From an uncultured Prevotellaceae bacterium (lineage in GTDB: Bacteria > Bacteroidota > Bacteroidia > Bacteroidales > Bacteroidaceae): a stretch of 9,204 bases of DNA. This document shows positions 1-9,204 of the stretch, one piece after another (within the stretch, counting starts at the first letter, position 1; each line of letters begins with the position of its first letter). Both the position numbers and the translations under genes were made by a program. The notes beneath the pieces were generated by a model. That model saw nothing but the letters and a program-made list of their open reading frames with translations. It did no database searches and was not told the origin of the DNA. The stretch is taken from assembly GCA_937892315.1 (NCBI GenBank), contig CALAVF010000359.1, forward strand, positions 1 to 9,204. The letters run 5' to 3'.

Positions 1-303
1 CTGCATGAGGGAGAGGACGGCTCCGTTGGGTTGTCCGTAATAGACGGGAGAGCCGACCACGAGGGCATCGGCGGTTGCCATCTTTTCCGAGATGCGGTTG
101 CACACATCGTCGTCGAACACACACTTGTTCTCTCCTTTCACCTTGCACTGCCCACAGGCGATGCAACTACGCACGGGCTTCACGCCGATTTGCACGATTT
201 CCGACTCAATGCCATGTTTCTCCAATGTTTTGGCAATCTCGCTCAGGGCGATGAAGGTATTACCCTGCTTTCGAGGGCTTCCGTTAATCAGTAATACTTT
301 CAT
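1..303 (-). CDS. Iron-sulfur flavoprotein / NADPH-dependent FMN reductase family (3' end cut by window edge)
   Basis: The first 101 codons of a flavodoxin-like protein are present; the rest lies beyond position 1. The ATG at 303-301 opens with MKVLLINGSPRKQGNT. GSPRKQGNT (residues 8-16) is the FMN-phosphate loop of the flavodoxin-like NADPH-dependent FMN reductase family, and GSPVYYG (84-90) is its second flavin-contacting loop. Between them lie C47, C50, C53 and C61, a CX2CX2CX7C cluster. That matches the compact [4Fe-4S] motif of archaeal/anaerobe iron-sulfur flavoproteins (Isf), in which electrons pass between the cluster and FMN. C68 is an additional cysteine. No signal peptide is visible, so it should be cytoplasmic. 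It follows the haem-uptake operon by 96 nt and has its own promoter. Its physiological partner is unknown; a redox role in iron or haem handling is only suggested by position. Confidence 0.88.
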   Translation of the reverse strand, partial: MKVLLINGSPRKQGNTFIALSEIAKTLEKHGIESEIVQIGVKPVRSCIACGQCKVKGENKCVFDDDVCNRISEKMATADALVVGSPVYYGQPNGAVLSLMQ

Positions 304-399: not shown

Positions 400-747
400 T
401 TATTCGGGCACGTAGATGATTTCACCGTTTTCCAGTTCGTAGGCAATGCCGACTCGTTTGCCTCGGTTGCCCGACTGCTGCGACTGGTCTTCGCTGGGCG
501 TGTAGCGGTTGATTTTCTGCCCTTCCTTGGTGATGATTTCCATGTTATCCTTGCCAGGGTTCTTCACCATGGTGAAGTCTTCCTGCGAGAACATCTCGGT
601 CATGTTGTAGCGGGTGACGAGGGCTACCATGAGGGCAACGGCGAAGACCATTGCCACATCGAAGAGGTTGGATACGACGGACATGGGGTCGTCGTCATCT
701 GTCTCCCGGCTTCTGAGGGGGGAGGTATGCGTTGTTTTCTTTAGCAT
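400..747 (-). CDS. hmuV: HmuV-like small membrane protein, DUF2149 family
   Basis: A 115-residue protein with a short polar N-terminus containing an acidic DDDDP stretch (17-21). One membrane helix follows at about residues 28-46 (FDVAMVFAVALMVALV region). The rest is a polar C-terminal domain ending in GIAYELENGEIIYVPE, the characteristic end of DUF2149 proteins. The topology is predicted to be N-in, C-periplasmic. An Asp (D30) at the start of the helix recalls ExbD/TolR, which pair with ExbB/TolQ channels through a membrane Asp. The ExbD-like role is inference from topology and from the HmuU neighbour. The ATG at 747-745 lies 6 nt after the hmuU stop, so translation is probably coupled. It is the last gene of the hmuYRSTUV arrangement known from Porphyromonas and Bacteroides. 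The biochemical function of the family is not established. Confidence 0.85.
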   Translation of the reverse strand: MLKKTTHTSPLRSRETDDDDPMSVVSNLFDVAMVFAVALMVALVTRYNMTEMFSQEDFTMVKNPGKDNMEIITKEGQKINRYTPSEDQSQQSGNRGKRVGIAYELENGEIIYVPE

Positions 748-753
748 GGTGGA

Positions 754-1350
754 TCAGTTTTGTGGTTCGGTGAGTAGGTCGGCAAGGAACTGGAGGTTGA
801 CACGGTCGTGTTCGTACCAACGTGCTTTGACCTGACCTGTGATGAAGCCAATGGCCGCGGAGAAGAGTCCCACGACGGTGGTGGCAAAGGCTACCTGCAT
901 GTTGTATGCCATCGAGGCAATGTCGCCAGCCGCCAATCCAACGAGGGCAGGACCCATCGGGATGAGTGTGCCCATCAGTCCGAGCATGGGACCCATCTTG
1001 GCGAGGGTTTTGCTGGTGGCGAGGTCTTTGGAGGCGGCAATGTCGAAGTCGGCAAGGAGTTTCTGGAGGTGTGGCTCGCTCGCCTTGTGCCCGAGCATCT
1101 GCTGGATGTAGAAGACCACCAGAGACTTGTTTTGCTTGGGCAGACGCTCGGCAAGGGTTGCCGCGTTGTCGGTGGTGAGTGTGTCGAACTCGGCAGTGAG
1201 CAGGGCTTCGGTCTTGCGCACAGCGAGATACTGGCCGAAGAAACTGCCAATGAGCAGCAGGGCGCGTGCGAAGAGGAGGATGAGCAGGATGATGACAGGC
1301 ACGAGCAGTCCTGTGGAAATCCAGTAGAGAATGTCTGAGATGTAGTTCAT
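754..1350 (-). CDS. hmuU: HmuU-like MotA/TolQ/ExbB proton-channel protein
   Basis: A 198-residue inner-membrane protein. It has one helix near the N-terminus (about 12-36), a cytoplasmic loop of about 80 residues rich in Lys, Ala and Leu, and two further helices (about 117-140 and 148-172). The segment KMGPMLGLMGTLIPMGPAL matches the signature of the MotA/TolQ/ExbB family, where these helices form the proton path of a rotary or energy-transducing complex. The reading frame is open back to 1518, but the upstream part overlaps hmuT and is Arg/Ser-rich shadow sequence. The ATG at 1350 starts MNYISDILYWIS, lies one base after the hmuT stop (TAA C ATG) and begins just before the first helix, so I choose it. 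In this operon it probably pairs with HmuV and HmuT to energise HmuS or haem transport. A general ExbB serving TonB is less likely given its DUF2149 and CobN-like neighbours. Confidence 0.9.
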   Translation of the reverse strand: MNYISDILYWISTGLLVPVIILLILLFARALLLIGSFFGQYLAVRKTEALLTAEFDTLTTDNAATLAERLPKQNKSLVVFYIQQMLGHKASEPHLQKLLADFDIAASKDLATSKTLAKMGPMLGLMGTLIPMGPALVGLAAGDIASMAYNMQVAFATTVVGLFSAAIGFITGQVKARWYEHDRVNLQFLADLLTEPQN

Positions 1351-1351
1351 G

Positions 1352-2122
1352 TTATTTTTCTTTATGATGGTTTCTATTCTGATTCTTTGGGGACGCGTAC
1401 CCCTCGGGTGCGATGTGCCGTACCTCTTGGGTACGCCCAACCATACCCCTCGGGTACACCTGATAGATAATGAAGCCGATGAGGGCGAAAAGGAGAGTGA
1501 GTCCCGCGATGCCCACAAGGGCTGTCCAGTTCACCTCGGAGATGCCGACAGCGGAGGTGCGTCCGTTCACGGTGGCAATGATTCCAAGCACGGCGATGAG
1601 CGTGTTGGAGAGGAAGAAGATTTCGAGGCGCAACTCCTTCTCGGGAATGAGCCAGCGGACGAGCCATGTGAGGACGATGATGGCGACCAGCACCACGGCT
1701 GCAAATCCGTAGGCAATGGTTTTGAAGTCCATGCCCGTCAGCGTGAACATCAGCATCGTCTCCAAATGGAAGAGGACAGGGAAGATGAGGATGCCGGGGA
1801 ACCAGCGCAGTGCCTTATAGATATATAATGTGCGTTTCCTCACCTTGCCTGTGTACATGAGGTGGGTCGCCAGAAGGCAGTAAGCCATTTGGATGACCAC
1901 CTCAATCGAGAGCACCACCGCCGTGTCAAGCATCAGTTGCTGATTGTTCAGCCAGTCGTGCAGTTGCGACTTGCTCTGTTCGATGGCATATTGCCATACG
2001 AGTGCCACGAACAGGGCACACACGGCTGCAAGGGCAATGACCCACCAAGGCTTGTGGTAGGTCTGCTTCAGCACCGTGTTGAAGCAGACCAGTACAATCA
2101 GTATGAGAACAACCGCTTCCAT
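1352..2122 (-). CDS. hmuT: HmuT-like polytopic inner-membrane protein
   Basis: A 256-residue, strongly hydrophobic protein. I count about seven membrane helices, near residues 3-17, 26-46, 64-88, 105-128, 134-159, 166-186 and 196-221. No catalytic motif is recognised. Assignment as HmuT rests on its place between the CobN-like gene and the MotA/TolQ/ExbB gene, the order found in hmuYRSTUV loci. The ATG (2122-2120) directly abuts the hmuS stop (TAG|ATG), a coupled junction. Membrane His residues, for example in the LFHLETMLMF segment, could in principle handle haem or metal, but this is speculation. The hydrophilic tail (about 222-256) is encoded largely by a palindromic repeat array and may be a strain- or lineage-specific extension. 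It might be a permease for the product of HmuS or a membrane scaffold for HmuUV. Confidence 0.75.
   Translation of the reverse strand: MEAVVLILIVLVCFNTVLKQTYHKPWWVIALAAVCALFVALVWQYAIEQSKSQLHDWLNNQQLMLDTAVVLSIEVVIQMAYCLLATHLMYTGKVRKRTLYIYKALRWFPGILIFPVLFHLETMLMFTLTGMDFKTIAYGFAAVVLVAIIVLTWLVRWLIPEKELRLEIFFLSNTLIAVLGIIATVNGRTSAVGISEVNWTALVGIAGLTLLFALIGFIIYQVYPRGMVGRTQEVRHIAPEGYASPKNQNRNHHKEK
1397..1457. repeat. Three palindromic repeats at 23-bp period inside the end of hmuT
   Basis: On the plus strand three related units begin at 1398, 1421 and 1444, exactly 23 bp apart: TACCCCTCGGGTG, TACCTCTTGGGTA and TACCCCTCGGGTA. Each is an inverted repeat with a 3-5 base centre (for example TACCC-CTC-GGGTA, or CGTACC-TCTTG-GGTACG at 1419-1435) and would form a short hairpin in the mRNA. 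The period is not a multiple of three, so the three units are read in three different frames of hmuT. They lie 47-107 nt upstream of the hmuU start. Confidence 0.8.
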
Positions 2123-5100
2123 CTATTCCTTGGTGGTTTGGCGGCGGCGACGAATCAGCACGGCGAGCAGGGCAATGAAGAGCACCACGATGGCGACAAC
2201 CACGATGTTGCTGACGATGGTGGTCTGCTCCTCGCCTCCGTTCATCTCCTCCTTCTTCAGCACCTTGCCATCTTGGCTGTTCACCTGTTCGTTGCGCACC
2301 TGTGCTATTTGCTGCCTGTATTCCTTGGCTGTGGCACCATCCACACGTTCCGCAATGAAGTCTTGCAGACGTTGGTTGTCGCTCACCATGCGCGAGCCAC
2401 TTGCGCCGTATTTGTTCACCAACTCCGTGTGGAGCGTCGCGATTGCTTTCAGTTGGGATGCCGAAGCCTCCCAGTAGCCCTTGCGAGCCGATTCCATCAT
2501 CACAGCCGTCATCTCTTGCAGCGCCGCAGGATTCTTCTGCTCGAAGAACTGGCGGGTGTCGAGGTGGTACTTGTCTTGTACGTAGGTGTCGTAAATCTCG
2601 TCCCACATCTCGCCGTCGATGGCTTCGGGCTTCATCACGTTCCAACCAAATGTGTTCTGCACCAGTTCGGCGAAGGTGTTCGCATCGCTGGCACCGCCCT
2701 GCATCTTCTCCTTGATGTAGGTGGGGTTGAAGAGCGTTGTGCGGCTCTCTACGCCGATGGCTTCCTTCACCTCCTGCATCTTTGCGCGGTTGCGGTTCCG
2801 ATAGTCGCTCAGGTAGGCATCTGGCTCCTTGCCCGTCACGTTGCGCACCGCCATGTTCATGCCGCCCATGAACTCATACACGTGGTCGAGCGACAGTGCG
2901 CCCCATGTGTTTGATTGGCGAGGCTGAATCACGGCATCTGTGCGGCTCAGTGCTGCCTCGAAGGCATATTGCCGCATCTCCTCCCAGTTCTTCTCGCTGC
3001 CATAGAAAGCACCCATGTTGTTCAGATACACCTCAGCCAGTTCTTCCTCCTTGTCCCAGCGGTCGCTTGCCATGGTCATCTCCTGAATGCCTGTACCGTA
3101 GTTGCCATTCATTCCACCAAAGACTCGGTAGGTGCTCATCTCCCGTGCCTCTTTGGGCGAGAGACCTTTCTCCACAAGCACCCGTTCCGCCTCCTTCACG
3201 CCGTCTGCCACCATGTTCGTGTAGTGGTCATCCTTTGCGCTGGCGGCCATCTCGATGGCACGGTTGAGCAGGAACAGGCGGGAAGCCGCCAAGTCGCGCA
3301 ACTGCCCCGAGGTCTGCACCACCACGTCGATGCGTGGGCGACCCAGTTCTTTCGAGGGAATGAGCCGTATGTCCGTCACGCGTCCGAAGGCATCACGAAT
3401 GGGTTCCACGCCGAGCATGTAGAGGCATTGGGCAATGGTGGCACCTCCTGTTTCGATGAACTCGCTCGACCATAGTGTGTAACTCACCTTGCGAGGAATG
3501 CTGTCGTGGTGACGCTCCCGATACAGGCGGATGGTGTTCTCTGCCAGTTCCTTGCCTTTCTCCCATGCCTGTTCGGACGGGCATGCCTCGGCATTCACAC
3601 CGAAGAGGTTTCTGCCTGTCGGCACAGCATTGGGATTGCTGATGACATCACCGCCCGGCGAGGGTGAGGTATAGCCACCGCTCAAGGCGTTGAGCATGGC
3701 ATTGAGTTCTTGCTGAGGAGAACCTTGCAGCGCAAGGCGGTAGTTACCCACGTTGCGGATGGTGCGCTCCACTTCCAGTATGGCGTGGGAGAAGTCCTTG
3801 TCCTCCTTGGTCAGCATGCCCGCTTCTGCCACCTTGTCCATCAACTGCTGCATGGCTGGCGACATGTTTGCCATCTTGCTTTCCGTGTGCTTGTCTGTGG
3901 CATCGTTGCCACCGTTTTTCTTCATCATCGCTGCCTTCATCTTCTTCAACTGTTCGGGCGAGGCACCCATCATCTTGGCAATGGCAAGTGCTTTCTTGGG
4001 ATCCATGCCTTTGCCCATCTCACGCATCTTTGACATCTTCTCAGCCTTCTGGGTATTTTCTTTTTGATGGGATGCCCCCTTCGGCTTGTGGGTTGCCACC
4101 ACCTTTTTCGCTCCAGGCATTTCGTTCGCCATGCTCATCATCATTGCCATCATGTCTTGTGGGGCGGTGATGATGCTGTCGATGTGGTGGGCGCGTTGGA
4201 GGTCTTCCATGCTGATATGGGCTATGCGGCAAACCTCGGCGTTGGTCACTTCGGAGGTGCGATTCAAGAGTGTGCCGACCAATGCTTTGGCAGGGTTGAG
4301 GTAGCGAGCCGTGAAGAGTGCTTGGTGCTTCTCCGTGTCGTTGGCAGCACGTTTCAGCATCTTGTCGAGCGCAAGAAGGCTGTAGGCAATCGGGTCGGTT
4401 GCCATGGCATAGACGGAGGTGTTGATGCGCTCCGTCTCGTAAGGAATGCCCAGGGTGTAGAAGTGACTGGTGATTTTCTCATTACAGAGTTCTTCGGCAA
4501 AGGCTTCGATGTGTGCAATTTCGTTCTCGGTGTAGGGTTTGCTCATGAGCGAATCGAGGTGCAGTTCGCGATGGATGCCCATCTCGACAGTAAGTTTCTT
4601 CACCGCAAGTGATGCCTTGTCGCTGGGTGCTTTGGTGTAGGCATCGATGGCATCGGTCAGTTTGTTATATGTGTTGCGCAGGTTGCTCTCCATGAACGGA
4701 GGGGTGAGGTAAGATACCGTTGCTGCATACGTGCGCCGTTTGGCAATCATCGCCTCGCCCACATTGCCGATGGTGTAGAAATAGAAGTGAGGAACAGCCC
4801 CCACCAGGCGGTCACTCCAGCAGTTCTGGGAGAGAGCCACCTGCTTGCCCGGTGTGTATTCAAGCGAGCCATGTGTGCCGAAATGGATGAGAGCATCAGC
4901 CTTGAAGGCGTTCTGAATCCACAGGTATTCAGCCAAGTAAGGGTAGGGTGGTACAGCCTCGGTGCCATGCACCATCTTGAAGGTGTCGCTTCCTGTGCCT
5001 GCTGGCATCTGAGGCATCAGCACGATGTTGCCCAGATGGATGATGGGCAATCCGAGGTTTTCCTCGTCCTTTGCCAGATACTCACCGGGGTATTCGCCGT

Positions 5101-6505
5101 TGGTCTTTTTCATCTCTTGCAGCGATTTCTCCGTCAGCGTTGCCTTTGCCCATGCCTCGAAGTCGCTCTTGCTGACCAACTGCGGCTTGCCCTCATGGAG
5201 GAACTTCGCCTGTGCTCCTTCGGCATAGGTGCCAAACACGCTGCCCGACTGCTGAATGAGGGCATCCAGTTCTTCAGCCGATGCAGGAAGACCGCTAACG
5301 TTATAGCCGTTCTCCTTCAACTGAACCAAGAAATTGTACAGCGACGACACCACTTCCAATCCTGACGCAATCAGGGAGTTGGAACCGGGGCCTTTGAAGT
5401 AAACAATCGCCACTTTCTTCTCTCGGTTCGCTTTCTTTTGCAAGGCGATATGGTTGTTGACTGCCGTTACAAATGTCTCCAGACGTTCGGGGATGGTGTA
5501 TGCCTCGGGCAATCCGTCTTTCCCCTCCCGAATGGCGAAGAGCACGAACGGACGAATCATGCCGTCGATTTCGGGTACGATGATGCTTTGCGAGAAGAAG
5601 CCGCCCTGCATGCCCTGCTTGTCCTCCTCCCAATCGGCGGTCATGCGGTTCACATTGACGGTGGAGAACAGCGGGATGTTCTGCTTTTTCAGATACTCCA
5701 CCATGTAGTCGCCAATGCGTCCGTGTGCCATGTTGATGATGGCGGTGGGTTGGATGCTGTCGATGGCATGCGTCTTGACCAATGTGGGCAGGTCTCGTGT
5801 GGCATACACCACGTTGCCCGTCTCTTCCAGTTTGCCGATGAGGTCGGTGGCGTCACCCATCATGCCTGCAATGAGGATGCGTGGTGCATCGGCTTTCTGC
5901 AAGCCGTTCTCTTTCAGGAATTTGTCATAGTCCTTAATGCAGGTGAACGATACTTCCTCTGCCTCTCGGTCCTTCACGTCGGGATGGTAAAGCAGTTGCG
6001 CTTCGCGTTCCTCTACAGGCTCCACTTCGCTGAGGAAGAATAGTTTGCCGTCCACCTCATTGCGCAGGTAGTTGAGAAAACTGCGGTAGTTCTTCCGTCC
6101 GCCAGCCGACATGTATTGCTTCAGCGAATCGGCATCCCACTCGTCAATGCTCACGATGTTGTTGGCAGGGTTGGTGGCGGCTGTGGTGAGAATCTTCAAC
6201 CCTCCGTCTGCCAGTTCCTGAATCTTGGTGCGTTGTTCTTCGGTCATGCGGATGCCCATGCCGCTGATGAGCACCACGTCATATCGGTTCCAATCGTCAA
6301 TGTTGTCAAGTTTTTCTTCCGAGAGCCTGATGAAGCGATTGTCATTCGCTTTCGATATTTCTCCGAGGCTTGTCACTTGGTAATTCACAAAAGCAATGCT
6401 GGTGGGGCTGCACATGTGACGCCAAAATACAACAACGGCTGTGAGAAGAATCACAGCCAGAATGAGAAGAAAGAGGTGCTTTTTCTTGAATGTTATTTTC
6501 TGCAT
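2123..6505 (-). CDS. hmuS: HmuS-like CobN/Mg-chelatase H-type protein, membrane-anchored
   Basis: A 1460-residue homologue of the large subunit of cobalt/magnesium chelatases. The CobN core signatures are visible: IHFGTHGSLEYTPGKQ (H541 and H545, the usual tetrapyrrole/metal-site region), followed by NCWSDRLVGAVPHFYFY and AKRRTYAATVSYLTPPF, and the C-terminal-half signature VPTGRNLFGVNAEACP starting at V961. Unlike soluble CobN it has a Lys-rich start and a helix at about 10-28, and a second helix at about 1430-1451 followed by RRRR. Both ends are thus cytoplasmic and the main body should sit in the periplasm. A Met/Lys-rich insert occupies about 785-904. The ATG at 6505 lies 3 nt after the hmuR stop. 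Known: HmuS belongs to haem-uptake operons of Bacteroidales and has been linked to haem use. Inferred: it binds haem delivered by HmuR and may remove its iron, the reverse of insertion. No CobS/CobT ATPase gene is present here; HmuTUV may supply energy instead. Confidence 0.92.
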   Translation of the reverse strand: MQKITFKKKHLFLLILAVILLTAVVVFWRHMCSPTSIAFVNYQVTSLGEISKANDNRFIRLSEEKLDNIDDWNRYDVVLISGMGIRMTEEQRTKIQELADGGLKILTTAATNPANNIVSIDEWDADSLKQYMSAGGRKNYRSFLNYLRNEVDGKLFFLSEVEPVEEREAQLLYHPDVKDREAEEVSFTCIKDYDKFLKENGLQKADAPRILIAGMMGDATDLIGKLEETGNVVYATRDLPTLVKTHAIDSIQPTAIINMAHGRIGDYMVEYLKKQNIPLFSTVNVNRMTADWEEDKQGMQGGFFSQSIIVPEIDGMIRPFVLFAIREGKDGLPEAYTIPERLETFVTAVNNHIALQKKANREKKVAIVYFKGPGSNSLIASGLEVVSSLYNFLVQLKENGYNVSGLPASAEELDALIQQSGSVFGTYAEGAQAKFLHEGKPQLVSKSDFEAWAKATLTEKSLQEMKKTNGEYPGEYLAKDEENLGLPIIHLGNIVLMPQMPAGTGSDTFKMVHGTEAVPPYPYLAEYLWIQNAFKADALIHFGTHGSLEYTPGKQVALSQNCWSDRLVGAVPHFYFYTIGNVGEAMIAKRRTYAATVSYLTPPFMESNLRNTYNKLTDAIDAYTKAPSDKASLAVKKLTVEMGIHRELHLDSLMSKPYTENEIAHIEAFAEELCNEKITSHFYTLGIPYETERINTSVYAMATDPIAYSLLALDKMLKRAANDTEKHQALFTARYLNPAKALVGTLLNRTSEVTNAEVCRIAHISMEDLQRAHHIDSIITAPQDMMAMMMSMANEMPGAKKVVATHKPKGASHQKENTQKAEKMSKMREMGKGMDPKKALAIAKMMGASPEQLKKMKAAMMKKNGGNDATDKHTESKMANMSPAMQQLMDKVAEAGMLTKEDKDFSHAILEVERTIRNVGNYRLALQGSPQQELNAMLNALSGGYTSPSPGGDVISNPNAVPTGRNLFGVNAEACPSEQAWEKGKELAENTIRLYRERHHDSIPRKVSYTLWSSEFIETGGATIAQCLYMLGVEPIRDAFGRVTDIRLIPSKELGRPRIDVVVQTSGQLRDLAASRLFLLNRAIEMAASAKDDHYTNMVADGVKEAERVLVEKGLSPKEAREMSTYRVFGGMNGNYGTGIQEMTMASDRWDKEEELAEVYLNNMGAFYGSEKNWEEMRQYAFEAALSRTDAVIQPRQSNTWGALSLDHVYEFMGGMNMAVRNVTGKEPDAYLSDYRNRNRAKMQEVKEAIGVESRTTLFNPTYIKEKMQGGASDANTFAELVQNTFGWNVMKPEAIDGEMWDEIYDTYVQDKYHLDTRQFFEQKNPAALQEMTAVMMESARKGYWEASASQLKAIATLHTELVNKYGASGSRMVSDNQRLQDFIAERVDGATAKEYRQQIAQVRNEQVNSQDGKVLKKEEMNGGEEQTTIVSNIVVVAIVVLFIALLAVLIRRRRQTTKE
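3794..4153 (-). other. Met/Lys-rich low-complexity insert within HmuS
   Basis: Residues about 785-904 of HmuS contain roughly 21 Met and 22 Lys in 120 residues, with runs such as MMAMMMSM at the start and MKAAMMKKNGG in the middle. The stretch falls between the CobN N-terminal half and the PTGRN C-terminal half, and separates two well-ordered regions. It looks like amphipathic helix plus flexible linker. The Met side chains could contact haem, a membrane or a partner. The exact borders are approximate. Confidence 0.7.
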
Positions 6506-6508
6506 GGA

Positions 6509-8467
6509 TTAAAAGAATTTGTCGATGTCAATAGAAACTCCTATTGTTAATGTAGTGCCAATGGTGGTGGGCGAGTTGGTGTAGTAGTTCTTGGGTTGGT
6601 AGTTGAAGAGATTGTCCACCGCACAGTTGAGGGTGATGCCTTTCACAAACCGCTGTGAGAGGCTGAATTTCCAGAGGCTGTAGCCGTTGTAGTGCGTCTT
6701 CGTCATTTCGTCGAGATTGGTAGTGGTGTATCCCGTCTCGTTGAAGGCAGAGAGAAATCGCCCGGAAAGCGCAATGTTGAAGCCGTAGTTCTTCGTGAAC
6801 TGGTGGTCGTAGTCGATTCGCCAAGTGAGGGAGTGGGGGCGTGCGGCTGTGAGGTCGGGTTGTCCTTTATCCACGATGCTTTTGGTGAAGGCATACGATG
6901 CCCTTGCTCCGAGTCCGTTGTGGTGATGCAGTTGCAGCGTGGCATCGGCACCTGCAATCTGCTGGTCAGCGACATTGGTGTACATCTGTCCGTAAGTGCC
7001 GTCACGTTGCACGGTGGCGGTGGTTATGTAGTTGTTGAAGAAGTTGTAGTAGCCCGTAGCCGTGAAACAATACTTCAGGTTGTCGCTGATGGAACCATAG
7101 TTTGTCCACGAGAGCGAGAAGTTGTGGTTGGTTTCGCACTTCAAGTCCTTGTTGCCATAAATCATGAAGATGTTGCCCATAAAGAAATCCATGTACAGTT
7201 CCTTCAGCGACGGGGCACGAAAGCCGCTGGCGTAGGAGGCTCGGAGGCTGTGCTTGCCTGTCTTGTACATTCCTGCCACCTTCCATGTCGGCATTCCCTT
7301 TTCGGCGGCAGAGAAGTAGTCGTAGCGGAGTCCTGCAATGACGTTCCAATGGTTGTTGGGCGTATAATCCCACTGTGCGAAGAGGTCGTAACTGTTCTGC
7401 GAGTGGTGTTTTTGGTCGTCGGAGAACTGGTAGGAGAGCAGATAGTCATTCATATAGTCGGCACCTGCCACCAACTGTGACTGCCACTCGGGCATCTTGA
7501 GGCTGTAGAGGGCACGCCCGATGTTCTGACGGTTGGAGTAGTCGCGCACATCCTTGTGGGTGCGGGTGGCAAAGTCCGACTTGTCGTACTGGTCGAAACT
7601 GTAGGTCATTTCGAGGTTTTGCAAGGGGGTGATGTCCCAGTTGCCTTTTAGCCCATAGTTGAGGTCGCGGTAACGATCGTGGGTCGGTTCGCTGGTGTCG
7701 CGTTCGCGGAAATAGTAGCCTGCCCGTCCCGTCAGTTTGAAGTCGTCGGCAGGTTGCCAAACGAGACGTTCCTTCACGTTGTAGGTTCGGTTGGAGGGGA
7801 TGGTACTGACGTAGGAATCGTCGCCTCCATTCAGGTGTACGTCGTCAGCGTCAGTCATCTGGAACGTGGTGAGCGAATTGACCTTTCCCACATTGAAGTC
7901 GGCGCTGGTACCGTGTCGCCACTCCTTGGTCGCCCCCTCATAGCGGGTGTTTACGTTCGCCGCCCAATGGTCAGACGGCTGCTTGGTGATGATGTTGATG
8001 ACCCCTCCCATCGCTGCCGAGCCGTAAAGCGTAGAGGCTGCTCCCTTCACAATCTCGATGCGTTCCACGTTCGACAAGTCCAATCGCCCGAAGTCCACAT
8101 TGTCCATCGTCTCGCCCGCCATGCGTTCGCCATCAATCAGGAAGAGGATGTTGTTGCCGTCGTAGCCGCCCATGTTCAGCACCAGGTTCGTGCCCATCGA
8201 GAAGGTGAACTCCAAGCCTGGGATTTCCTGTTGCAGCAGGTCTTTCACGTCGGTGGCATCCACCTTTTTGATGTCTTCGGCTGTGATGACACGTGTCACG
8301 ACAGGGATGTCCTTCAGCGCTTTTGGGGTACGTGTACCTGTCACGACCACCGTCTGCAGTCCCAATGGGTCTTTGTTCCACACGGTGGTGTCGGCTGGCT
8401 CTGTCTCGGCTTGTGCTGTGGCAAATACGAGCAGCCCTATGATTGTATGATATATGTGTAGTTTCAC
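6509..8467 (-). CDS. hmuR: HmuR-like TonB-dependent haem receptor
   Basis: A 652-residue outer-membrane receptor if started at the GTG (8467-8465). This start yields MKLHIYHTIIGLLVFATAQA, a good signal peptide with probable cleavage before ETEP. A TTG start at 8503 would add 12 basic residues and overlap hmuY; no ATG fits. The plug begins at LQTVVVTGTR (37-46) and includes DVKDLLQQEIPGLEF, LFLIDGERM, VERIEIVKGAASTLYGSAAMGGVINI, all standard TonB-receptor plug motifs. The remainder is a 22-strand-type beta barrel ending in the typical terminal Phe. SGFRAPSLKELY (R417) corresponds to the conserved YRAP/FRAP region of haem receptors such as P. gingivalis HmuR. The nearby NPNL-type motif is degenerate here (GNKDLKCETNHNF) and carries a Cys. 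It accepts haem from HmuY and passes it to the periplasm using TonB energy. The partner tonB/exbBD are not in the window. Confidence 0.92.
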   Translation of the reverse strand: MKLHIYHTIIGLLVFATAQAETEPADTTVWNKDPLGLQTVVVTGTRTPKALKDIPVVTRVITAEDIKKVDATDVKDLLQQEIPGLEFTFSMGTNLVLNMGGYDGNNILFLIDGERMAGETMDNVDFGRLDLSNVERIEIVKGAASTLYGSAAMGGVINIITKQPSDHWAANVNTRYEGATKEWRHGTSADFNVGKVNSLTTFQMTDADDVHLNGGDDSYVSTIPSNRTYNVKERLVWQPADDFKLTGRAGYYFRERDTSEPTHDRYRDLNYGLKGNWDITPLQNLEMTYSFDQYDKSDFATRTHKDVRDYSNRQNIGRALYSLKMPEWQSQLVAGADYMNDYLLSYQFSDDQKHHSQNSYDLFAQWDYTPNNHWNVIAGLRYDYFSAAEKGMPTWKVAGMYKTGKHSLRASYASGFRAPSLKELYMDFFMGNIFMIYGNKDLKCETNHNFSLSWTNYGSISDNLKYCFTATGYYNFFNNYITTATVQRDGTYGQMYTNVADQQIAGADATLQLHHHNGLGARASYAFTKSIVDKGQPDLTAARPHSLTWRIDYDHQFTKNYGFNIALSGRFLSAFNETGYTTTNLDEMTKTHYNGYSLWKFSLSQRFVKGITLNCAVDNLFNYQPKNYYTNSPTTIGTTLTIGVSIDIDKFF

Positions 8468-8483
8468 ACGCGTTCTTGTTTTT

Positions 8484-9204
8484 TTAATTCTTCGCTTCTG
8501 CAAAGAGGGGGTATTTGTAGTTGACCGTCATCCATCCCTTTGTCTGATAACGGTCGTTGCTCATGAAGTCCACCAGTTGCACTGCGGCATAGGTGCTGTC
8601 GCTGAAGCGGTAGAGCATCACATTGTCGTACATCGTGTAGATGGGGGGCATCGTGCTCAAATCCATATTGAGCCATTTGCCCGCCTCCTTGTTTTTGTAG
8701 CCTGGGGCGTATGTGAGATAGCCTTCCATCATGTGCGACATGTCGATGGTGATGGATGCGTCGCTCCATTCGTCCTCTACCCAAAGAGGCTCGGCGGGCA
8801 GCCCTGCCGTCTCCAACTCTTCGATGGAGTGGTAGTTGGTCATCATCACCGAGGCTCCGTTGGTCTTCACGTCGTAGCGGTGTTGAGCAAAGTCCCACTC
8901 TTGGGGCGCACCGCTTTCGGTGGAGTCTTCAAGGTTTATGGTAGAGGTGGTGATGGCGAGTGAATCGCCGTGCAGGTTGATGTACACCCATTGCGTGTAA
9001 CTGGTGGCGTTGATGTAGTATTGTCCCGACTTGATGCTGACGAGCGTGCTGTCATTTGTCATCACAGAGTCGTTCTGCTGGCTGCTGCCGTTTTCCGTTC
9101 CGCTGTTGCCGCCGCCGTCCACCGTGTCGTCATACGCGCCTTCCAGCATATCACAAGCCGAGAATAGCCCCACCCAAGAGGCTATTCCCAGTATTGTCCA
9201 TATT
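8484..9204 (-). CDS. hmuY: HmuY-family haem-binding surface lipoprotein (5' end cut by window edge)
   Basis: The frame runs open to the right edge; the true start lies beyond 9204. The visible N-terminus reads IWTILGIASWVGLFSAC, a hydrophobic signal segment ending in a lipobox with the acylated Cys at 9155-9153. It therefore should be an outer-membrane, probably surface-exposed lipoprotein. A Gly/Ser/Asn-rich linker follows, then the HmuY domain: QWVYINLHGDS, the family signature EWDFAQHRYDVKTNG, and the C-terminal YAAVQLVDFMSNDRYQTKGWMTVNYKYP. Characterised HmuY proteins bind haem directly; P. gingivalis uses two His ligands, while relatives from other Bacteroidales differ. Which residues act here cannot be told; His and Met residues around ASVMMTNYH and SHMMEGYLTY are candidates. 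The GTG at 9173 must not be taken as the start, since it would cut the signal peptide. The stop (8486-8484) is 16 nt before hmuR. Confidence 0.88.
   Translation of the reverse strand, partial: IWTILGIASWVGLFSACDMLEGAYDDTVDGGGNSGTENGSSQQNDSVMTNDSTLVSIKSGQYYINATSYTQWVYINLHGDSLAITTSTINLEDSTESGAPQEWDFAQHRYDVKTNGASVMMTNYHSIEELETAGLPAEPLWVEDEWSDASITIDMSHMMEGYLTYAPGYKNKEAGKWLNMDLSTMPPIYTMYDNVMLYRFSDSTYAAVQLVDFMSNDRYQTKGWMTVNYKYPLFAEAKN

What the first reader, a model, noticed from the sequence alone, without database searches (positions are those of the whole stretch)
400..6505. Chelatase-like protein paired with a proton-channel module instead of AAA+ ATPases
CobN-type chelatase subunits normally work with the ATPases CobS/CobT (or ChlI/ChlD). 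Here the CobN-like HmuS is tightly coupled (0-6 nt gaps) to a 7-TM protein, a MotA/TolQ/ExbB-type channel and a single-pass DUF2149 protein with a membrane Asp, like ExbD. The hypothesis is a periplasmic haem-processing machine in which HmuTUV uses the proton gradient to drive conformational work in HmuS, such as metal removal or product export. The operon itself is known; the mechanism is inference.
Basis: partly seen in the sequence, partly recalled or inferred. Interest (0 to 1): 0.75.

Follow-up and report, generated by a model that had tools for sequence, protein, structure and literature searches.

The report
Proton-motor partners of heme de-chelatase
This is the known heme-uptake operon of gut Bacteroidota; relatives of its iron-removing enzyme and two small membrane proteins resembling a proton-driven motor occur together in distant bacteria and in archaea that have no outer-membrane receptors, which suggests the motor serves the enzyme or its transporter rather than outer-membrane uptake.

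Summary
In detail: the window holds the Bacteroidota hmuYRSTUV operon on the minus strand. HmuS matches the solved heme de-chelatase and keeps its named residues. HmuT is 7-TM, HmuU a MotA/TolQ/ExbB channel with pore threonines, HmuV DUF2149 with Asp30. Gaps S-T-U-V are 0, 1 and 6 nt.

Operon and HmuS activity are published; one lab proposed that HmuU/V power the receptor HmuR through TonB. Comparative evidence speaks against that. In 120 genomes of the Methanosarcina phylum, DUF2149 and MotA/ExbB (over cut-off) occur in the same 37, all with CobN; TonB-receptor plugs in none, ExbD over cut-off in none. In 149 genomes of a Segatella's order, the 9 with full DUF2149 are the 9 with CobN. An anchored CobN was seen in 29 of the 37; none of 41 CobN C-termini from the 31 DUF2149-less CobN genomes is anchored.

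Best reading: an exported, ATP-free branch of class I chelatases whose AAA+ motor was replaced by a proton-driven one. The permease is a serious alternative target: some archaeal loci hold motor plus permease without CobN nearby, and two genomes pair the motor with unanchored CobN. Contact and energy use were not tested.

The parts
8484..9203 (-). hmuY, hemophore-like protein gene (5' end cut by the window)
   Evidence: Pfam HmuY 2.2e-26
6509..8503 (-). [quoted passage not shown] first start is TTG)
   Evidence: Pfam Plug 1.8e-24 and TonB_dep_Rec_b-barrel 7.6e-40
2123..6505 (-). hmuS, membrane-anchored CobN-type heme de-chelatase, 1460 aa, N-terminal TM (10-28) and C-terminal TM (1433-1451) followed by RRRR
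   Evidence: Pfam CobN 1.4e-293; full-length match to 9d26; residues equivalent to Met79, His254, His538, Gln1198, Ser1199, Trp1202, Asp1208, His1209, Glu1212 present; TMs
3911..4153 (-). methionine-rich stretch of HmuS (about residues 785-865)
   Evidence: sequence read; a methionine-rich insertion is named as an HmuS feature in PMC12583661
1352..2122 (-). hmuT, 7-TM protein of no named family, in the place that DUF2162 fills in archaea and Desulfobacteria
   Evidence: 7 hydrophobic segments; AF2 pLDDT 83.6; hhalign to DUF2162 probability 23%
754..1350 (-). hmuU, MotA/TolQ/ExbB-family channel subunit, 198 aa
   Evidence: Pfam MotA_ExbB 42.6 bits, cut-off 22.9; ExbB T148 and T181 equivalents both Thr
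400..747 (-). hmuV, DUF2149 single-pass protein, 115 aa
   Evidence: Pfam DUF2149 1.9e-35; TM 24-42
658..660 (-). codon of HmuV Asp30, the acid in the membrane helix
   Evidence: Asp in 337 of 338 relatives, Glu in 1

Best explanation
HmuS belongs to an exported, membrane-anchored branch of class I (CobN/ChlH) chelatases that works without ATP. Its motor is a proton-driven ExbB/ExbD-like pair, HmuU (pore threonines) and HmuV (membrane Asp30), in place of the cytosolic AAA+ motor. Proton flow through HmuU/HmuV would move HmuV's outer part against HmuS or its TM anchors and reset HmuS (cavity opening, PPIX or Fe(II) release) so that it turns over. HmuT (DUF2162 in archaea) would be the membrane permease of the same complex. 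Shown here: gene content and order, genome-level co-occurrence, residue conservation, anchored CobN on one side of a supported split, absence of TonB-receptor plugs in the archaeal holders. Published: HmuS removes iron from heme. Inferred: physical coupling, proton use, and which step is powered.
For: (1) Same 120 archaeal genomes: DUF2149 in 37, MotA_ExbB over cut-off in the identical 37, CobN in 68 including those 37; ExbD over cut-off 0, receptor plug 0. (2) 149 genomes of the order of a Segatella: full-length DUF2149 in 9, CobN in 9, the same 9, on one contig each. (3) C-terminal TM in 23 of 24 archaeal and 38 of 40 bacterial CobN frames (1000 aa or more, both ends held, window included) in DUF2149 loci; anchored CobN confirmed in 29 of the 37 DUF2149 archaeal genomes; 0 of 41 CobN C-termini from all 31 archaeal CobN genomes without DUF2149 (34, 7). 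(4) Tree of 130 CobN: one split, support 1.0, with 77 anchored plus 8 not scored as anchored on one side and 45 unanchored on the other. (5) HmuV Asp30 337/338; HmuU T148 92/92 and T181 87/92. (6) Trichlorobacter has canonical exbB-exbD-tonB beside MotA-DUF2149-CobN; L014 also has an ExbD in its locus. (7) Comamonadaceae, Pseudoalteromonas and two Planctomycetota loci have no HmuT- or DUF2162-like permease beside the trio, while archaea lack receptors, so CobN is the partner common to both. (8) Purified HmuS: 1-2 turnovers; ATP not needed (PMC12583661). P. gingivalis inner membrane stimulates HmuS, E. coli's much less (PMC13227078).
Against: Purified HmuS does make some PPIX without partners. 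5 of 21 archaeal loci with 7 kb on both sides have no same-strand CobN within 7 kb; four of them are permease-MotA-DUF2149 alone. Of 23 further CobN frames near DUF2149 opened in the archaeal sample, 4 are not C-terminally anchored: G028 (N-terminal helix only), G040 and two in G048. Of the 37 DUF2149 archaeal genomes, 5 showed only unanchored CobN and 3 are unclear. MotA-DUF2149 also sits beside CARDB or beta-propeller surface proteins. DUF2149 is not shown to be homologous to ExbD, and the HmuV model is poor (pLDDT 66.9). His1209 with Glu1212 is in 22 of 22 HmuT-type HmuS but in 0 of 28 archaeal linked and 1 of 18 other bacterial CobN, so heme chemistry is probably not shared by the others. 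A B. fragilis btuS1 btuS2 double mutant still released PPIX (PMC6460266). Co-occurrence counts are not corrected for shared descent.
Confidence: 0.5

Rival explanations
1. The motor powers the 7-TM permease (HmuT, DUF2162), which moves metal, heme or porphyrin through the inner membrane; HmuS only feeds it.
For: Permease-MotA-DUF2149 is a tight trio in archaea and Desulfobacteria, and occurs without adjacent CobN in L016, L039, L042, L047. PMC13227078 draws HmuTUV as an inner-membrane heme transporter. Azospirillum and Diaphorobacter have ABC-transporter genes near the trio. Ni, Co, Zn neighbourhoods fit import.
Against: No HmuT- or DUF2162-like permease beside the trio in Comamonadaceae, Pseudoalteromonas and two Planctomycetota loci that were read. 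The assemblies of L039 and L042 carry a CobN-containing copy as well (L089, L038). HmuT is a different or very diverged family.
Confidence: 0.28
2. HmuU/HmuV are the ExbB/ExbD pair that energises the outer-membrane receptor HmuR through a TonB encoded elsewhere (the reading of PMC10100974 and PMC12583661).
For: HmuR is a TonB-dependent receptor in the same operon; 36 of 50 bacterial loci hold a receptor; the 2023 paper reports similarity of HmuU/V to ExbB/ExbD.
Against: The pair is kept in archaea: 0 of 120 genomes have a receptor plug and 0 of 120 ExbD over cut-off (2 weak). Trichlorobacter has both pairs in one cluster. No TonB among the seven window proteins scanned. Flavobacterium psychrophilum has a HmuR/HmuY-like pair without the other hmu genes (PMC9331221, passages). 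Bacteroides ihuae has ExbD and receptors but no DUF2149 (controls).
Confidence: 0.12
3. HmuU/HmuV act without force: a scaffold or proton supply for HmuS or HmuT, for example delivering the protons that replace iron.
For: De-chelation consumes two protons per heme (reaction given in PMC12583661); pore residues are kept.
Against: The periplasm is the proton-rich side, so a channel is not needed to bring protons there (inference).
Confidence: 0.1

Closest known systems
hmuYRSTUV operon and HmuS heme de-chelatase (B. thetaiotaomicron, P. gingivalis)
   Same: Same six genes and order, same named catalytic residues, TM at both ends
   Different: Nothing essential; the window is another member. Only the reading of HmuTUV is new.
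CobNST cobaltochelatase and ChlHID magnesium chelatase
   Same: PF02514 large subunit
   Different: Those are cytosolic and powered by AAA+ subunits; HmuS is anchored outside (also noted in PMC13227078), needs no ATP (PMC12583661), and has a MotA/DUF2149 pair next to it
ExbB-ExbD / TolQ-TolR / MotA-MotB proton motors
   Same: HmuU is PF01618 with pore Thr; HmuV has one TM with an Asp in register with ExbD Asp25
   Different: HmuV is DUF2149, no PF02472 match; short beta-rich outer part in a low-confidence model; no TonB among the window proteins; occurs in archaea
PA1922-PA1925 of Pseudomonas aeruginosa (Zur-regulated, zinc)
   Same: Receptor, CobN-like, channel protein and DUF2149 in one operon (PMC8531726, PMC11761036, PMC9431628; passages)
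   Different: Zinc rather than heme; no HmuT in the passages seen
pSZ77 cobN cluster of Geobacter (Trichlorobacter) lovleyi
   Same: DUF2162-MotA-DUF2149-CobN; authors noted no cobS/cobT partners (PMC3403914, passages)
   Different: Lies by cobalamin genes and carries its own exbB-exbD-tonB

Membership tests
HmuS heme de-chelatase | CobN-Mg_chel domain, full length | tested here: met
   1.4e-293; 9d26 alignment residues 9-1458
HmuS heme de-chelatase | Site 1 Met79/His254 and site 2 His538, His1209, Glu1212 | tested here: met
   window residues M83, H261, H545, H1208, E1211
HmuS heme de-chelatase | Methionine-rich insertion and two TM anchors | tested here: met
HmuS heme de-chelatase | Removes iron from heme | not testable with these tools
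   Shown for B. theta HmuS in PMC12583661
MotA/TolQ/ExbB channel (HmuU) | PF01618 over cut-off, 3 TM | tested here: met
   42.6 bits against 22.9; 3 hydrophobic segments
MotA/TolQ/ExbB channel (HmuU) | Pore threonines equivalent to ExbB T148 and T181 (role recalled) | tested here: met
   Thr in 92/92 and 87/92 relatives, both Thr in HmuU; ExbB Glu176 is not kept
MotA/TolQ/ExbB channel (HmuU) | Pentameric assembly, proton conduction | not testable with these tools
   no complex prediction or assay available
ExbD/TolR (HmuV) | PF02472 profile match | tested here: not met
   no ExbD match for HmuV at E up to 1; for 106 relatives ExbD is not among the 25 of 49 families shown
ExbD/TolR (HmuV) | Single TM with essential Asp | tested here: met
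   aligned in register with ExbD Asp25 over 19 columns, probability only 16%; that it is essential was not tested
ExbD/TolR (HmuV) | ExbD-type periplasmic fold | tested here: inconclusive
   model pLDDT 66.9, no Foldseek match under E 0.001
Ton system energiser | Serves a TonB-dependent receptor through TonB | tested here: inconclusive
   not testable in the window's own genome; for relatives, 37 of 120 archaeal genomes have the pair and 0 a receptor plug
CobNST / ChlHID | AAA+ subunits encoded with the large subunit | tested here: not met
   none among the seven window proteins scanned; rest of genome not held
DUF2162 permease (HmuT) | PF09930 match | tested here: inconclusive
   no DUF2162 match for HmuT; hhalign probability 23% over 161 columns
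MFS-like half transporter (HmuT) | fold | tested here: inconclusive

The most novel reading that the evidence does not exclude
Class I chelatases have two motors. The cytosolic branch (CobN, ChlH) uses AAA+ ATPases; an exported, membrane-anchored branch found in Bacteroidota, Desulfobacteria, Proteobacteria, Planctomycetota and methanogenic archaea uses a proton-driven MotA-DUF2149 pair to pull iron, nickel, cobalt or zinc from chelates outside the cell membrane.
Probability: 0.42. Interest if true: 0.85.

Novelty: new variant of a known kind. Interest (0 to 1): 0.62.

Why it matters
If true, it would be a new energy coupling: a proton motor driving a metal-handling enzyme rather than flagella, the outer membrane or Tol-Pal. 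It would explain how ATP-free, anchored CobN proteins turn over outside the membrane, and give a function to DUF2149 and DUF2162. It also offers one hypothesis for the archaeal CobN-like proteins whose role the HmuS authors call unclear (PMC12583661), and would change the assignment of HmuU/HmuV in a heme-iron pathway of gut and oral Bacteroidota.

Tried and rejected
TonB-energiser reading: lowered after the archaeal genome survey. FMN reductase gene at 1-303 as an electron donor: no relative downstream of DUF2149 in the 21 HmuT-type loci that hold 700 nt or more there (one relative lies 935 nt downstream in an archaeal locus, L078), so dropped. Fold searches for HmuT and HmuV gave nothing decisive. 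DUF2149 to ExbD by profile comparison: not established. HmuT to DUF2162: not established.

AAA+ neighbours: PF01078 was too broad (119 of 120 genomes over cut-off) and its match list was cut short. I put only 16 of the listed matches into the script; it shows 10 of 76 unlinked CobN with one within 5 kb. Rereading the list, I see no listed match within 5 kb of any of the 33 linked CobN, but the cut list makes this a weak negative; in G048 an ORF beside a linked CobN looks AAA+-like by eye. I do not use this as evidence. My single-sequence DUF2162 profile missed true members (L024, L074), so the 'no permease' lists are too long; I rely only on loci read by eye. The phylum-wide sample of 118 genomes had DUF2149 in 1 and CobN in 31; the other 30 were not tested for anchors. 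CobN topology rests on a simple hydropathy cut-off of 1.6. The DUF2149 scan patterns favour Asp30, so the fairer count is the 240 database proteins, all Asp. The tree is of 130 of 131 sequences (G028's linked CobN was dropped for gaps), lacks the loci fetched, and is midpoint-rooted, so it shows a split and not a clade. In my alignment the site-1 letters Met79 and His254 are present in only 9 and 11 of 22 HmuT-type HmuS, by divergence or misalignment. Complex prediction of HmuS-T-U-V could not be run.
Full report
The window. On the minus strand the window reads hmuY (cut), hmuR, hmuS, hmuT, hmuU, hmuV. Pfam gives HmuY, TonB receptor, CobN-Mg_chel, nothing over cut-off for HmuT, MotA_ExbB and DUF2149. 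The gaps R-S-T-U-V are 3, 0, 1 and 6 nt. HmuS aligns over its full length with the solved HmuS de-chelatase 9d26. It carries the residues that PMC12583661 names for site 1 (Met79, His254) and site 2 (His538, His1209 with Glu1212), plus Gln1198, Ser1199, Trp1202 and Asp1208, a methionine-rich stretch and a TM helix at each end. The ends look cytoplasmic by positive charge (KKK before the first TM, RRRR after the last), which puts the body outside. HmuV likewise starts with basic residues and its short remainder lies outside (inference).

What is known. Of the EMBO J 2025 paper (PMC12583661) I read the outline, passages and five sections. HmuS turns heme into PPIX and Fe(II) with NADH, without ATP, and the purified protein stopped after 1-2 turnovers. 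Its Figure 1 legend assigns HmuU/HmuV to powering HmuR and leaves HmuT unclear. The same group's 2023 paper (PMC10100974, passages) already noted ExbB/ExbD similarity of HmuU/HmuV, gave the TonB reading, and lists HmuV relatives in Methanomicrobia. The P. gingivalis paper (PMC13227078, passages) found that P. gingivalis inner membrane stimulates HmuS and E. coli membrane does so much less. It reports TM anchors in HmuS but not in CobN or ChlH, says that HmuTUV may affect the activity, and draws HmuTUV as a heme transporter. The searches I ran were: HmuS with heme and Bacteroides (17 papers), DUF2149 (5), CobN/ExbB/DUF2162/methanogen (78 with two terms, 20 listed), nickel/cobalt/TonB/CobN (106, 20 listed), CobN-like/ExbB-like (761, 20 listed), DUF2162 (0), a six-term set (17, 15 listed), CobN with MotA (9) and BtuS with chelatase (5). 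In those listings and the passages read I saw no proposal of a proton motor for CobN. I read only some of those papers, in part, and subscription journals are not held.

Where else the set occurs. A tblastn of HmuV on plasmids found 11 records; nine were opened. Trichlorobacter lovleyi has receptor, DUF2162, MotA, DUF2149 and CobN, followed by canonical exbB, exbD and tonB, in one cluster. Azospirillum has CobN-MotA-DUF2149 near nikR, with iron ABC-transporter genes downstream. Diaphorobacter has MotA-DUF2149 with an unannotated protein before and ABC-transporter genes after it. Runella has the trio among hypABF and hypCDE, with a permease weakly like NicO (below cut-off). Comamonadaceae and Pseudoalteromonas have MotA-DUF2149-CobN with no permease beside it. 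Published data add the Zur-controlled PA1922-PA1925 of P. aeruginosa (passages) and a CobN-like protein made with NikR1 only under nickel limitation in a hydrogenotrophic methanogen (PMC12350162, one passage; whether it has the motor genes was not tested).

With the plasmid set this is 89 loci, 39 archaeal and 50 bacterial. MotA lies next to DUF2149 in 37 of 39 and 48 of 50. Same-strand CobN within 7 kb occurs in 24 of 39 and 44 of 50. Among loci with 7 kb on both sides the figures are 16 of 21 and 26 of 27. One of the five archaeal misses (L022) has CobN close by on the other strand; the others (L016, L039, L042, L047) are DUF2162-MotA-DUF2149 alone, and the assemblies of L039 and L042 hold a CobN-containing copy elsewhere (L089, L038). 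A canonical ExbD was found in only two of the 89 loci, L003 and L014.

Genome-level test. The published TonB reading predicts that the pair follows receptors. In one sample of 120 genomes from the phylum of a Methanosarcina, DUF2149 is in 37, MotA_ExbB over cut-off in the same 37 (one more genome weakly), CobN in 68 including those 37, ExbD over cut-off in 0 (2 weak), and receptor plug in 0 (comparison). In 149 genomes of the order of a Segatella (Bacteroidales), DUF2149 over cut-off is in 10, one of them a 29-residue fragment. CobN is in 9, exactly the 9 with full-length DUF2149 and on the same contigs. These counts are not corrected for shared descent. The wider phylum sample of 118 had DUF2149 in 1 and CobN in 31, so CobN in general does not need DUF2149. 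Within the archaeal sample 42 of 48 DUF2149 places have MotA within 1 kb and 27 of 48 have a listed CobN match within 10 kb; many of the rest lie on short contigs.

Two kinds of CobN. CobN frames of 1000 aa or more with both ends held, in DUF2149 loci, have a hydrophobic C-terminal helix in 23 of 24 archaeal and 38 of 40 bacterial cases, the window's HmuS included. Of 23 further CobN frames near DUF2149 opened from the archaeal sample (some may repeat loci), 19 are anchored and 4 are not: G028, which has only the N-terminal helix, G040, and two in G048. All 31 archaeal genomes that have CobN but no DUF2149 were opened: 41 CobN C-termini (34, 7), none anchored; six more pieces lacked the C-terminus. 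Of the 37 DUF2149 archaeal genomes, 29 have an anchored CobN by sequence, 5 showed only unanchored CobN (G038, G040, G048, G085, G106) and 3 are unclear (G018 and G079 cut, G028). A tree of 130 CobN has one split of support 1.0 with 77 anchored and 8 not scored as anchored on one side and 45 unanchored on the other. Of the 8, five are cut at locus ends and three complete ones score 1.26 to 1.6. Further exceptions: G040 and G048 carry MotA-DUF2149 next to an exported 543-aa protein, and some loci pair the motor with CARDB, beta-propeller or NosD-like surface proteins.

Residues. HmuV Asp30 is Asp in 337 of 338 and Glu in one (Runella). The loci were partly found through that motif, but the 240 database proteins were not picked by it, and all have Asp. 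In 92 HmuU relatives the position of ExbB T148 is Thr in all, and that of T181 in 87; Glu176 is not kept (the roles of these residues are recalled). HmuV matches ExbD/TolR only over 19 TM columns with the two Asp in register, probability 16%, so I do not call it ExbD. AF2 gives HmuV one long helix and four strands at low confidence, and HmuT a helical bundle at pLDDT 83.6, with no decisive fold match. His538 is kept in most CobN of every group, but His1209 with Glu1212 is in 22 of 22 HmuT-type HmuS, 1 of 18 other bacterial linked, 0 of 28 archaeal linked, 1 of 16 later long and 10 of 46 later short archaeal CobN.

Reading. Cytosolic CobN and ChlH are moved by AAA+ ATPases (established knowledge, restated in PMC12583661). 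An exported CobN has no ATP. The partner found with the exported kind is a channel pair with the proton-path residues kept. Archaea exclude the receptor as the common target, and some Proteobacteria and Planctomycetota lack a recognised permease beside the trio, so the exported CobN is the one partner common to these lineages. That favours HmuS as the thing moved, at about one in two. The permease is the main rival because of the archaeal loci that hold motor and permease without CobN nearby. The other members probably handle other metals or ligands than heme, as the missing His1209/Glu1212 and the Ni, Co and Zn neighbourhoods suggest (inference).

Noticed in passing
window 1-303 (-): NADPH-dependent FMN reductase-like gene with CxxCxxC, 96 nt downstream of hmuV on the same strand; not found there in the 21 other HmuT-type loci with enough sequence.
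   Followed up: partly
L121, L122, L125 (archaeal): MotA-DUF2149 beside large exported CARDB, PQQ beta-propeller or NosD-like proteins, once with a TPR-DUF2162 fusion, instead of CobN.
   Followed up: partly
L169, L170 (G040, G048): MotA-DUF2149 beside an exported 543-aa protein that by eye resembles a substrate-binding protein, with unanchored CobN in the same cluster.
   Followed up: partly
DUF2162 alignment A6: Invariant P-C-P-x-C motif in the membrane permease family (23 sequences), suggesting a metal site.
   Followed up: no
L007 7608-8234: Permease in the Runella nickel cluster has only weak NicO/DsbD similarity below cut-off.
   Followed up: no
L005 4298-4735: DUF2149-like frame on a Paracoccus plasmid without MotA or CobN, next to a short piece of a receptor; looks like a remnant.
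   Followed up: no
L035: Several CobN frames in tandem beside one MotA-DUF2149 pair in a methanogen.
   Followed up: no
L064, L067, L068, L073 and similar Prevotellaceae loci: Shorter HmuT-linked CobN (about 1283 aa) stand beside the 1440-1460 aa HmuS type; only 9 and 11 of 22 HmuT-type sequences align with the site-1 Met79 and His254, so there may be two HmuS subtypes.
   Followed up: no
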